Notes under the pieces: generated by a model
Told to the model about the DNA's origin: nothing
What the model saw: the letters and a program-made list of their open reading frames with translations, nothing else
Database searches by the model: none
Program-made: the position numbers and the translations under genes
Shown: positions 9,657-13,735 of the stretch, piece after piece
How positions within the stretch are numbered: the stretch's first letter is position 1
Layout: each line of letters opens with the position of its first letter
Assembly (NCBI GenBank): GCA_902479835.1
Contig: CABSQC010000008.1
Coordinates: 1 to 13,735 of the forward strand
Reading direction: 5' to 3'
Origin: an uncultured Streptococcus sp.
GTDB taxonomy: Bacteria > Bacillota > Bacilli > Lactobacillales > Streptococcaceae
DNA: 13,735 nucleotides

Positions 9657-12275
9657 ATGAAACAATTATCTAGTGCACAAGTTCGTCAAATGTGGCTTGA
9701 TTTCTGGGCAAGCAAAGGTCACTCTGTAGAACCATCTGTTAGCTTGGTTCCTGTAAACGACCCTACACTTTTGTGGATTAACTCAGGGGTTGCCACTCTT
9801 AAGAAATACTTCGATGGAACCATCAAACCTGAAAATCCACGGATTACAAATGCTCAAAAAGCCATCCGTACCAATGATATCGAAAACGTAGGGAAGACTG
9901 CTCGTCACCATACCATGTTTGAAATGTTGGGGAACTTCTCAATCGGAGATTATTTCCGTGATGAAGCCATTACGTGGGCTTATGAACTTTTGACAAGCCC
10001 TGAATGGTTTGATTTCCCTAAAGACAAACTTTACATGACCTATTACCCTGACGACAAGGATTCATACAACCGTTGGATCGCTGTTGGTGTAGATCCAAGT
10101 CACTTGATCCCAATCGAAGACAACTTCTGGGAAATCGGTGCGGGGCCTTCTGGACCAGATACAGAAATCTTCTTTGACCGTGGAGAAGCCTTTGACCCTG
10201 AAAATATCGGTCTTCGTCTGCTTGCAGAAGATATCGAAAACGACCGTTACATCGAAATCTGGAACATTGTCTTGTCACAATTTAACGCTGACCCTGCTGT
10301 TCCTCGTAGTGAGTACAAGGAATTGCCACACAAGAACATTGATACGGGTGCAGGTTTGGAACGTTTGGTAGCCGTTATCCAAGGGGCCAAGACTAACTTT
10401 GAAACAGACCTCTTCATGCCAATCATTCGTGAAGTGGAAAAGATGTCTGGTAAAACCTATGATCCAGATGGCGATAACATGAGCTTCAAGGTGATTGCTG
10501 ACCACATCCGTTCGCTTTCATTTGCGATTGGTGATGGGGCTCTTCCAGGTAATGAAGGACGCGGTTACGTTCTTCGTCGTCTCCTCCGTCGTGCTTCCAT
10601 GCATGGGCAAAAATTGGGGATTGAAGGAACCTTCTTGTATAAATTGGTTCCAACCGTTGGGAAGATCATGGAAAGTTACTACCCAGAAGTACTTGAAAAA
10701 CAAGACTTTATCGAAAAAATTATCAAGAGTGAAGAAGAGTCATTTGCTCGTACTTTGAATTCTGGTCAACACTTTGCCCAAACCATCGTTGAAGACTTGA
10801 AAGCCAAAGGTCAAACAGTGATTGCTGGTCAAGATGTCTTTAAACTTTATGATACATACGGATTCCCAGTAGAATTGACAGAAGAAATCGCTGAAGAAGC
10901 TGGAATGACAGTCGATCGTGAAGGTTTTGAAGCAGCTATGAAGGAACAACAAGAACGGGCGCGTGCATCTGCTGTCAAAGGTGGATCTATGGGGATGCAA
11001 AATGAAACCCTTCAAAACATTACAGTTGAAAGTAGCTTCAACTACAATGCCAGCCAATTGCCTTCTAAGTTGGTGGCTATCGTAGCGGACAATGCAGAAG
11101 TAGAAGCTGTATCTGAAGGGACTGCATCACTGATCTTTGCAGAAACTCCATTCTATGCTGAAATGGGTGGACAAGTTGCGGACCATGGTCAAATCTTGGA
11201 TGCTGCAGGAAACGTCGTAGCGACAGTGACAGATGTTCAAAAAGCACCAAATGGACAACCACTTCATACTGTTGAAGTTCTTGCTCCTCTTGCCTTGAAC
11301 CAAGAATACACCTTGGCGATCGATACCAATCGTCGTCATCGTGTTATGAAGAACCACACTGCAACTCACTTGCTCCATGCGGCTCTTCACAATATCCTTG
11401 GTAACCATGCAACCCAAGCAGGATCTCTTAACGAAGTAGAATTCCTTCGCTTTGACTTCACCCACTTCCAAGCCGTAACTCCAGAAGAATTGCGTGCTAT
11501 TGAGCAACAAGTCAATGAAAAGATTTGGGAAGCGATCGCAGTCGAAACGATTGAAACAGATATCGATACTGCTAAAGAAATGGGAGCTATGGCCCTCTTT
11601 GGTGAGAAATACGGTAAGGAAGTTCGCGTAGTCACTATCGGGGACTACTCTGTTGAGCTCTGTGGTGGTACCCACGTAGGCAATACTTCTGAAATTGGTC
11701 TCTTCAAGATTGTCAAAGAAGAAGGGATCGGATCAGGAACTCGTCGTATCTTGGCAGTGACTGGTAAGGAAGCCTTTGAAGCTTATCGTGAACAAGAAGA
11801 TGCTCTGAAAGCAGTCGCAGCAACTTTGAAAGCTCCTCAACTCAAAGAAGTACCTCACAAGGTTGAAGGACTTCAGGAACAACTCCGTCAGTTGCAAAAA
11901 GAAAATGCAGAATTGAAGGAAAAAGCAGCAGCAGCGGCAGCAGGGGATGTCTTCAAGAATGTTCAAGAAGCAAATGGACACCGTTACATTGCCAGCCAAG
12001 TTTCTGTATCAGATGCAGGTGCTCTTCGTACCTTTGCGGATAACTGGAAACAAAAAGATTACTCTGACGTCCTTGTTCTTGTCGCAGCCATCGGTGACAA
12101 GGTCAATGTCCTTGTAGCTAGCAAGACAAAAGAGGTCCATGCAGGTAATGTGATCAAAGAATTGGCTCCAATCGTCGATGGACGTGGTGGTGGTAAACCA
12201 GACATGGCCATGGCAGGAGGAAGCAACCAAGCTAAAATCCAAGAATTGTTGGATGCTGTAGCAGGTAAATTGTAA
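9657..12275 (+). CDS. alaS: Alanyl-tRNA synthetase
   Basis: Class II aminoacyl-tRNA synthetase of 872 aa (full length for bacteria) that charges tRNA-Ala and edits mischarged Ser and Gly. The catalytic domain (about 1-250) contains motif 2-like [13 protein letters not shown] (83-95). The tRNA-recognition domain extends to about 450. The editing domain carries the zinc-binding HTATH (His567, His571) and CGGTH (Cys669, His673). A coiled-coil linker (about 735-765, with an Ala run AAAAAAG) leads to the C-Ala domain ending in [14 protein letters not shown] (from about 842). The start has TAGGAG (9645-9650) upstream. It is the second gene of the T-box operon and is closed by a terminator. Identification is certain. 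Confidence 0.98.
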
Positions 12276-12282
12276 TCTAGAG

Positions 12283-12310
12283 AAGATCTACCCTCGGGTA
12301 GGTCTTTTTG
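12283..12310 (+). terminator. Rho-independent terminator of the alaS operon
   Basis: AAGATCTACC and GGTAGGTCTT form a 10-bp stem with one G-T pair around a CTCG loop, followed by T5 and more T-rich DNA. Confidence 0.92.
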
Positions 12311-12334
12311 TTTGTGTATTTTTTTATATATGGC

Positions 12335-12362
12335 TTGACTATTTTTGAAAATGTGATAAACT
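12335..12362 (+). promoter_or_regulatory. Possible promoter for the cas1 remnant and cas2
   Basis: TTGACT (12335-12340, 5 of 6), a 16-bp spacer and TAAACT (12357-12362, 4 of 6). It is the only promoter-like pair between the alaS terminator and the cas1 start, but the -10 is weak. Confidence 0.4.
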
Positions 12363-12395
12363 GATATCCTTTATCCATTGAGGAAGTGTCAGGAC

Positions 12396-12732
12396 ATGAG
12401 TGGTTTATTCGTACAAAAGTCGGACTATGCTTTAGGTCTATCTGAATACAGAATTATCGTGAAAAATGGGAATGGTGAAATTTTCAGGGAGAGCTAGAAA
12501 AGGAGCTATTTGAAAAAGAGGAGGATGATGCTGTCATATGAACAGATGAGGGAAGTGAAATCTTTATCCGAGGTATGAGGGAAAGGATGCTGGAAAATCA
12601 TCCATATGTTCAAGGTATAGCAAACGTTACAGTTTTTTCTATACTGCTGATCAGCAAATCAAAAGCTTGATCAGGTCGTTTGAGGAGCTAGGTCCTCAAT
12701 CTTATCGAATATGTGATACAGGAGATAACTAA
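12396..12732 (+). pseudogene. cas1: cas1 remnant with internal deletion, stop and frameshift
   Basis: Three pieces of a Cas1 integrase survive in three frames. Piece 1 (12396-12494) starts at an ATG behind GAGGAAG and encodes 33 residues, including LFVQKSDYALGLSEYRIIVK, like the Cas1 N-terminal strand domain, then stops at TAG 12495. Piece 2 (about 12491-12618) encodes LEKELFEKEEDDAVI, an in-frame TGA (12539-12541, probably a former Trp), then TDEGSEIFIRGMRERML and ENHPYVQG. Piece 3 (12619-12732) encodes KRYSFFYTADQQIKSLIRSF and ends SYRICDTGDN, a Cas1-like C terminus. Its TAA overlaps the cas2 ATG as TAATG, the coupling expected of cas1-cas2. About 110 codons remain of an expected 300-340, and the central catalytic region is gone, so no active integrase can be made. 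The family call is from pattern and context, not a search. Confidence 0.8.
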
Positions 12733-13061
12733 TGGGATTATTCTATCGTTTATCAGGAGATGAGAAAGAGTTCGCCAAGAAAAAGTCTCTCTTTTGCTTG
12801 ATTATCTACGATATCACCAGCAATAAACGGAGATTGAAATTGTCTAAACTACTAGAGGGATTTGGGGTTCAAGTGCAACGCTCCTGTTTTGAGGTAGATT
12901 TAGAGGGCTCTAGTTATCAGCTCTTACTTGGTGCTCTTCAAGATTTTTATGATGCCAAGCAAGAGGACAACATTATCATCTATGTCGGTAGTCGGGAGGA
13001 AACTGTTCGTTTGAATAGTGATGAGGGCTCAGTAGAACGTGAAGATTGTTTGTTCTTCTAG
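12732..13061 (+). CDS. cas2: CRISPR-associated protein Cas2
   Basis: Small ferredoxin-fold protein of 109 aa. Cas2 dimers hold Cas1 dimers together in the spacer-integration complex. The first strand FCLIIYDI (21-28) carries the conserved Asp27, followed by NKRRLKLSKLLEGFG (31-45) and VQRSCFEVDL (48-57), the standard Cas2 pattern. IIIYVG (81-86) is the fourth strand. An extra N-terminal stretch of about 18 residues (MGLFYRLSGDEKEFAKKK) makes it slightly longer than the usual 85-100 aa. The start has AGGAG at 12720-12724 inside the cas1 remnant and overlaps its stop. Cas2 is intact although its partner is destroyed, so it is probably orphaned here unless another Cas1 exists in the genome. The CRISPR leader begins at its stop codon. 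Confidence 0.92.
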   Translation: MGLFYRLSGDEKEFAKKKSLFCLIIYDITSNKRRLKLSKLLEGFGVQVQRSCFEVDLEGSSYQLLLGALQDFYDAKQEDNIIIYVGSREETVRLNSDEGSVEREDCLFF

Positions 13062-13154
13062 CTGAAAGCTCTCGTAAAATATGGTATACTTAAGATAGTT
13101 TCCAGGTAGGAACTATCTTGTGTGTTGATTTCCTTTTGGGGTACAAGATATGGG
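13062..13154 (+). promoter_or_regulatory. CRISPR leader with extended -10 promoter and inverted repeat
   Basis: The 93 bp between cas2 and the first repeat is AT-rich. TGgTATACT (13082-13090) is an extended -10 with a 4-of-6 -35 candidate CTGAAA 17 bp upstream (13062-13067), suited to starting pre-crRNA at about 13097. AAGATAGTT and CC (13092-13103) pair with GG and AACTATCTT (13109-13119) in a near-perfect inverted repeat without a T tract. Transcription would start inside it, so it is more likely a DNA site than a terminator. GGTAGGAAC in its right arm (13105-13113) recurs at the leader-repeat junction (13154-13162, with one base of flexibility in alignment). Confidence 0.6.
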
Positions 13155-13735
13155 GTAGGAACCCACCCAACCCTCGCGAGGGGACGGAAACTATACCTCT
13201 TTAGGGTATCTTACTTCTTTTGTAGTATTGTGGAAACCCACCCATACCTCGCGAGGGGACGGAAACTTTCCATTGTATACCTTCCCTATAATGCTCACTG
13301 TAGGAACCCACCCATACCTCGCGAGGGGCCGGAAACGCTTAGGCTCTGGTTTAGGTTCAGGCTTAGGCTCTGATTGTAGGAAACCACCTATACCTCGAGA
13401 GGGGCCGGAAACGTTGTGTCATTTTATGTTTCCTCCTTAAATGACTTGTAGGAGACCACCTATACCTCGAGAGGGGACGGAAACTAAACATGAACCGTTA
13501 CACCTTTAGGGTCTTCCACGTAGGAAACCACCCATACCTCGATAGGGGCCGGAAACTTGAATACATCAATTGGTTTGACCTTGTGCTTCAGTAGTACCCC
13601 ACCCATACCTCGACAGGGGCCGGAAACCCAAAGGGACTTTTTTATTCTCTGCCAGCTAACCGGTAGTACCCCACCCATACCTCGAGAGGGGACGGAAACA
13701 CTACATCCAATCTTTCTCTATGTGGACCTTCGTCT
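13155..13735 (+). CRISPR. Type III-A-like CRISPR array, 8 degenerate 37-bp repeats, runs off the window
   Basis: Repeats lie at 13155-13191, 13230-13266, 13300-13336, 13376-13412, 13448-13484, 13520-13556, 13591-13627 and 13663-13699. Spacers are 38, 33, 39, 35, 35, 34 and 35 nt, plus 36 nt of an eighth reaching the window end. The 5' half is near GTAGGAACCCACCCATA and the 3' half is CCTCGAGAGGGGACGGAAAC in the best-conserved form. That 3' half, from memory, equals the S. thermophilus CRISPR2 (type III-A) repeat, and ACGGAAAC is its known crRNA 5' handle, which fixes transcription as + strand from the leader. No two repeats are identical. Stem CCTC/GGGG is invariant; loops are GCGA (repeats 1-3), GAGA (4, 5, 8), GATA (6) and GACA (7). 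The handle starts with A in repeats 1, 2, 5, 8 and with C in 3, 4, 6, 7. cas6, cas10 and csm genes would be expected beyond 13735. Confidence 0.96.

What the first reader, a model, noticed from the sequence alone, without database searches (positions are those of the whole stretch)
12335..13735. Adaptation end of a type III-A CRISPR locus with cas1 destroyed, cas2 and array kept
The cas1-cas2-leader-array order and the repeat 3' half match the S. thermophilus CRISPR2 (Csm) locus. Here cas1 has an internal deletion, an in-frame stop and a frameshift, while cas2 is open and the array has at least eight repeats. Spacer uptake with its own Cas1 is impossible, yet interference could persist if cas6/cas10/csm are intact. 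It would be a frozen immune memory, or one depending on Cas1 from another locus.
Basis: partly seen in the sequence, partly recalled or inferred. Interest (0 to 1): 0.75.

Follow-up and report, generated by a model that had tools for sequence, protein, structure and literature searches.

The report
CRISPR immune locus missing its writer
An oral streptococcus carries a type III-A-like CRISPR array whose spacer-writing gene cas1 is destroyed while its companion cas2, leader and repeats still look sound, so it probably can only read old immune memories; this is a real but broadly known kind of CRISPR erosion.

Summary
Window 12396-12732 is a cas1 ruin: codons 1-32, then about 670 bases missing, then codons 267-334 broken by a stop and a frameshift. 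cas2 (12732-13061) is open, and a leader and at least eight repeats follow. Homology places it with type III-A loci of mitis-group streptococci. It is not a sequencing error: S. parasanguinis CC87K and Streptococcus sp. CF8_St5-11 carry the same lesions. In those two, cas2 is also broken, the array is down to two relic repeats, and no Cas1 or Cas10 was found, so kin give no support for rescue by another Cas1. Most of the ruin lies in a 417-base tract identical to the second species inside DNA differing by about 7-10%, so the null allele probably moved by recombination. Damage to cas1 recurs: 8 of 17 Streptococcus genomes with Cas10 have it broken or absent; G078, a single contig, has an independent internal deletion beside open cas2, array and csm genes. 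Repeat variability does not mark cas1 loss, since 6 of 8 examined arrays with intact cas1 show it. Whether this strain has cas6/cas10/csm cannot be read: the window ends in the array and its assembly is not held. Best reading: a read-only III-A locus.

The parts
9657..12275 (+). alaS, full length; left neighbour of the CRISPR insertion
   Evidence: 872-aa ORF; 98.5-99% identical at protein level to the alaS next to the ruin in L034/L035
12280..12309 (+). terminator-like hairpin after alaS; bases 12282-12313 or so match the region after alaS in other streptococci
   Evidence: pattern scan, 4 such sites found against 1.3 in shuffles; short matches in 8 other loci of 30 compared, G001 itself apart
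12335..12362 (+). promoter-like site before the cas1 ruin (9 of 12 letters)
   Evidence: pattern scan, 4 found against 2.5 in shuffles
12396..12491 (+). cas1 relic, codons 1-32
   Evidence: tblastn, 69% identity
12524..12613 (+). cas1 relic, codons 267-296, with in-frame TGA at 12539-12541
   Evidence: tblastn, second frame, one stop; frame translation
12622..12732 (+). cas1 relic, codons 300-334 in a third frame; its TAA overlaps the cas2 start (TAATG)
   Evidence: tblastn 60% identity over 12622-12726; sequence
12732..13061 (+). cas2, open, 109 aa
   Evidence: PF09827 E 1.1e-12; TIGR01573 over cut-off
13062..13154 (+). leader with extended -10 TATGGTATACT
   Evidence: -10 invariant in 7 of 7 aligned leaders, the decayed G001 among them; promoter-like 13062-13090
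13155..13191 (+). repeat 1
13230..13266 (+). repeat 2
13300..13336 (+). repeat 3
13376..13412 (+). repeat 4
13448..13484 (+). repeat 5
13520..13556 (+). repeat 6
13591..13627 (+). repeat 7
13663..13699 (+). repeat 8; at least the start of a further spacer follows to the window end

Best explanation
[quoted passage not shown] parasanguinis-like genome, whose Cas1 integrase was lost by an internal deletion and further lesions. Shown: cas1 null, cas2 open, leader promoter and repeat stem/handle undamaged, null allele shared with two other genomes. Strongly suggested: the null allele moved by recombination. Inferred: the leader transcribes the array, Cas6 cuts the transcript and a Csm (Cas10) complex encoded past the window end uses the crRNAs, so the locus reads old spacers but cannot add new ones.
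For: cas1 pieces and lesions; same lesions in G001 and G235. Unlike G001/G235, the window has an open cas2: of 25 cas2 differences from G001, 11 fall on the G001 side, 5 on the window side, 9 are unclear; of 12 leader differences, 7 on the G001 side, 1 on the window side, 4 unclear. The two relic repeats of G001/G235 carry core and handle changes, the window's eight do not. Relatives with a complete csm set and no usable cas1 beside it: G078 (independent deletion), G066, G123, G133. Two protein clusters of window-type Cas2 have the same longest-contig length as a Cas10 cluster (22,653 and 259,400 bases), which suggests, but does not show, Cas2 and Cas10 on one contig in this lineage.
Against: No cas6, cas10 or csm gene is in the window, and both genomes that share the cas1 ruin lack Cas10 and show none of these genes at the site. 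Three of the 5 window-side Cas2 changes alter the protein, one at an Arg kept in the ten other sequences (though P0006 and P0010 have Trp there and P0046 has the window's Gln). The undamaged repeat core is no proof of constraint: at the window-side rate seen in cas2 and leader (6 of about 420) no change in 136 positions is unremarkable, so the loss may simply be recent. The leader -10 is also intact in decayed G001. No protospacer for 7 of 8 spacers in IMG/VR by exact 21-24-base cores, nor in INPHARED outside low-complexity spacer 3.
Confidence: 0.57

Rival explanations
1. A dying remnant: the effector genes are already gone or broken downstream, as in S. parasanguinis CC87K and CF8_St5-11, and the array is inert DNA on its way out.
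For: Both genomes with the same cas1 ruin show cas2 with a stop and a frameshift, two relic repeats, then a truncated second alaS and nrdF, and no Cas10 hit. A review table lists S. parasanguinis with I-C only (PMC8841824, passage seen).
Against: In the window cas2 is open and leader and repeat core are undamaged; right of about 12,675 the window differs from both decayed genomes (48-49 columns in 12675-13154), while those two are nearly alike there, so it is a different, less decayed haplotype.
Confidence: 0.35
2. Adaptation goes on with a Cas1 supplied by another CRISPR locus of the same genome.
For: Cas2 and leader look usable; 140 of 284 Streptococcus genomes have some Cas1, and G123 and G133 combine a III-A locus without cas1 beside it with a Cas1 elsewhere.
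Against: Neither G001 nor G235 has a Cas1 hit; the own genome cannot be searched. That a type II Cas1 would serve a III-A leader is not known to me.
Confidence: 0.06
3. Assembly or sequencing error in an intact cas1.
For: None found.
Against: The same deletion, stop and frameshift in two other assemblies.
Confidence: 0.02

Closest known systems
Type III-A (Csm) loci of mitis-group streptococci, e.g. S. mitis SK667 (L032) and 850_SMIT (L033)
   Same: Order cas1-cas2-leader-array; Cas2 70-72% identical; leader promoter; repeat 3' half; strong variation among repeats
   Different: There the array is followed by cas6-cas10-csm2-6, and in SK667 alaS lies downstream of csm6 (L033 ends before that point); here the locus sits after alaS, the effector part is unseen and cas1 is ruined. 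SK667's own cas1 has a frameshift and 850_SMIT's an early stop near its end
G078 type III-A locus (unnamed single-contig Streptococcus genome, L044)
   Same: Internal cas1 deletion next to open cas2, leader and array; one weak Cas1 match in the genome (6e-11), its place not listed and taken to be this relic
   Different: Independent deletion (codons about 73-264), still in frame; cas6-cas10-csm2-6 present
S. parasanguinis CC87K (G001/L034) and Streptococcus sp. CF8_St5-11 (G235/L035)
   Same: The same cas1 lesions after alaS
   Different: cas2 broken, array reduced to two relic repeats, truncated second alaS then nrdF, no Cas10 hit
S. thermophilus CRISPR2 (III-A)
   Same: Same subtype; described as not acquiring spacers and perhaps a degenerated fragment (PMC5826314, passages seen); a Cas2 named S. 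thermophilus is 67% identical over 72% of the query (P0082; that it is CRISPR2's is assumed)
   Different: Whether its cas1 is intact was not examined here

Membership tests
CRISPR-Cas type III-A | cas10 (csm1) and csm2-5 effector genes | not testable with these tools
   Window ends in the array; own assembly not held
CRISPR-Cas type III-A | Cas2 of the III-A branch by profile | tested here: inconclusive
   PADLOC Cas2_IIIa is the best of 19 models for the window by a narrow lead (59.7 against 58.8 bits), but for the Cas2 of a complete III-A locus (L041) it ranks third, so the model does not discriminate
CRISPR-Cas type III-A | gene order, leader and repeat 3' half as in complete Streptococcus III-A loci | tested here: met
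   Cas2 70-72% identical to theirs
CRISPR-Cas adaptation module | full-length Cas1 with catalytic core | tested here: not met
   codons about 33-266 missing, stop and frameshift
CRISPR-Cas adaptation module | Cas2 | tested here: met
   PF09827 E 1.1e-12; TIGR01573 36.9 bits, cut-off 24.5
Functional CRISPR array | regular repeats with unlike spacers and a leader | tested here: met
Functional CRISPR array | transcription and processing to crRNA | not testable with these tools
   needs RNA
Functional CRISPR array | spacers matching phages or plasmids | tested here: inconclusive
   no exact core match for 7 of 8 spacers in IMG/VR (spacer 3 not scanned); only low-complexity spacer 3 matched in INPHARED at E up to 1; no match in plasmids for 12276-13735 at E 1e-5

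The most novel reading that the evidence does not exclude
In oral streptococci the III-A system is being turned repeatedly into a read-only immune memory: cas1 is lost by separate events that spare cas2, leader, array and effector, and cas1-null alleles themselves pass between species by recombination, switching off adaptation in recipients whose locus is otherwise sound.
Probability: 0.3. Interest if true: 0.62.

Novelty: new member of a known kind. Interest (0 to 1): 0.42.

Why it matters
CRISPR loci that keep interference but lose Cas1 bear on why bacteria give up spacer uptake while keeping old spacers. Here the same null allele is seen in three genomes at two stages of decay, and a separate deletion in a fourth, which gives a natural series for asking whether Cas1 loss is neutral decay or favoured.

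Tried and rejected
Sequencing error: rejected, lesions shared. Repeat variability as a sign of cas1 loss: rejected. Of 17 distinct arrays besides the window (L042 is L033 again), 15 vary with mean 4.6-8.2 differences per pair of 36-nt repeats, against 4.5 in the window; L046 and L055 are below 1. Of the 8 examined arrays with intact cas1, 6 vary and 2 (L046, L055) do not. A single steady clock for the whole locus: rejected, 2 of 335 differences in the cas1 ruin against 27 of 329 in cas2 for window against G235. Repeat-core conservation as proof of constraint: not upheld; 0 of 136 positions changed where the rate of mitis-type arrays predicts 3.2, but the 17 'constrained' positions were chosen after seeing which vary, and one further position where the window has a change was left out. 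Counting Cas1 against Cas10 clusters in the protein database: dropped, because the 'member' and 'contig' columns point opposite ways by eye. No Cas1 cluster among the 120 of 220 listed has longest contig 22,653 or 259,400; this fits Cas1 loss there but is not relied on. Association of 5' and 3' repeat halves: no consistent pattern. The viral contigs gave no locus with this cas2.

Full report
Observation. The window holds alaS (9657-12275), then a cas1 ruin, cas2, a leader and at least eight repeats. Against an intact 335-aa Cas1 from L041 the ruin keeps codons 1-32 (12396-12491), codons 267-296 (12524-12613, with a stop) and codons 300-334 (12622-12726), in three frames. The intact gene is 1008 bases, the ruin 337. 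The middle part, which by Cas1 motifs that I recall holds the catalytic residues (roughly codons 155-240 of L041; positions printed), is gone. cas2 is open and passes Pfam and NCBIfam; the overlapping stop/start TAATG between cas1 and cas2 is still there.

Origin. The own assembly is not held; the nearest genome G001 shares 36% of sampled words. G001's contig length (1,373,472) equals that of S. parasanguinis CC87K, and G235's (606,460) that of Streptococcus sp. CF8_St5-11, so I take them to be the same records; the window is probably from the S. parasanguinis group.

Same ruin elsewhere. In 284 Streptococcus genomes the DNA query (only the two best first-look candidates per genome were scored) gives long matches over 90% in G235 and G001 alone; five more (G101, G108, G103, G214, G078) match at 68-71%, and G199 at 65%, from the cas1 end through cas2 and leader. 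G001 and G235 share the cas1 lesions (5 and 2 differences in 335 bases), but have a stop and a frameshift in cas2, one degenerate leader-end repeat, about 600 bases of other DNA, one more degenerate repeat, a truncated alaS (codons 730-872) and nrdF. Neither is among the genomes with a Cas1 or a Cas10 match. G215, G148 and G007 show the plain order alaS-nrdF, so the locus is an insertion at that junction. In several mitis-type loci the order is csm6 - small gene - alaS, so the truncated second alaS may mark a larger ancestral insert ending in alaS; that is inference.

Recombination. Window and G235 are identical for 417 bases (12258-12674), which covers most of the ruin, while alaS differs at 173 of 2600 positions and 12675-13154 at 49 alignment columns, gaps included. 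With 6-8.5% independent divergence the chance of such a tract is about 6e-12 to 8e-17. So the null allele has very probably moved between lineages; the direction is unknown. It also means that the window's cas2 and array need not have been without Cas1 for long.

Is the rest sound? Of 25 cas2 differences between window and G001, 11 fall on the G001 side, 5 on the window side (3 change the protein), 9 are unclear, judged by five mitis-type sequences. Of 12 leader differences 7 fall on the G001 side, 1 on the window side, 4 unclear. In the repeats, the window has no change at 136 constrained 3' positions, where the rate in 221 mitis-type repeats (8 arrays, terminal repeats dropped) predicts 3.2. 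I chose those positions after seeing which ones vary, and left out one position where the window has a change. The chance of none is 0.06 at 2% and 0.016 at 3%, but the window-side rate seen in cas2 and leader is only about 1.4%, so the result is unremarkable and fits recency as well as constraint. The relic repeats of G001/G235 carry core and handle changes. The leader's extended -10 is invariant in 7 of 7 leaders compared, decayed G001 included. Predicted repeat hairpins are weak: z-scores from -0.92 to 1.36, so folding gives no support.

Relatives. 17 of 284 genomes have Cas10/Csm1 over the cut-off, 26 any match. I fetched the loci of 16 of the 17 (all but G065, judged) plus G027, which has cas6 but no Cas10 over the cut-off. 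cas1 is one uninterrupted frame in 9 of 17 (G020, G065, G101, G191, G193, G195, G199, G214, G240), damaged in 5 (G021, G025, G078, G103, G108) and not found beside the array in 3 (G066, G123, G133; 1.1-1.3 kb before the array were searched). Single stops or frameshifts in draft genomes (G025, G103, G108) could be errors, and G103 loses only the last 25 codons. G078 is one contig and has an in-frame internal deletion of its own, an open cas2, 28 repeats by motif scan and cas6-cas10-csm2-6; its genome has one Cas1 match, weak, taken to be this relic.

Link of window-type Cas2 with Cas10. Cas2 cluster P0024 (94% identical over 80%, lacking the first residues) and Cas10 cluster P0172 both have longest contig 22,653; P0054 (90% over 66%, its end out of frame) and P0117 both 259,400. 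A mitis-type triple (P0035, P0099, P0218, all 13,568) suggests that such equal lengths link parts of one locus. Three Cas2 clusters at 80% identity or more have contigs over 10 kb; the third (P0002, 40,651) has no partner among the 120 of 485 Cas10 hits listed. This is indirect.

Spacers. No exact core match in IMG/VR for 7 of 8 spacers (spacer 3 was not scanned). In INPHARED only spacer 3, a simple repeat, matched, in 16 records, none named a streptococcal phage. The same spacer matches many Streptococcus genomes in simple repeats.

Literature. A review table lists S. parasanguinis with I-C only (PMC8841824, passages seen). S. thermophilus CRISPR2 is described as not gaining spacers and perhaps degenerated (PMC5826314, passages seen). 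The start of an abstract says that M. tuberculosis III-A shows little evidence of acquisition while interference works (PMC13334790, search listing only). Nine searches listed no paper whose title or abstract start names this S. parasanguinis locus; most subscription papers are not in that library.

Verdict. A genuine, mostly ordinary case of adaptation loss in a III-A-type locus, made more interesting by the shared, probably recombined null allele and the parallel deletion in G078. Function in this strain rests on unread sequence.

Noticed in passing
L032, L033, L041, L043-L045, L047-L054, L056 arrays: 15 of 17 Streptococcus III-A arrays examined have strongly varied repeats (means 4.6-8.2 differences per pair of 36), with the 3' handle and stem mostly kept; in L041 and L053 identical variants recur at non-adjacent places by eye. 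Neighbours are more alike than random pairs (p under 0.05) in only 5 of 17 arrays, and in the window. How new repeats come to differ is unexplained.
   Followed up: partly
L034:9545-11620 and L035:9545-11620: The CRISPR remnant is flanked by a full alaS and a truncated alaS copy before nrdF, as if a large fragment ending in alaS had been inserted and then mostly deleted.
   Followed up: partly
window 13337-13375: Spacer 3 is a low-complexity sequence that matches simple repeats in many Streptococcus genomes, so it may target host-like sequence.
   Followed up: no
P0040: A database Cas2 named S. pneumoniae is a mosaic: mitis-type first half, and a second half like the decayed G001 cas2.
   Followed up: no
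window 13091-13120: A 12-pair hairpin in the leader between promoter and first repeat; the mitis-type leaders differ there by eye.
   Followed up: no
L035:10706-11032 and the same ORF in L001:2662-2988: A 108-aa ORF of unknown kind lies between the two relic repeats of G001/G235.
   Followed up: no
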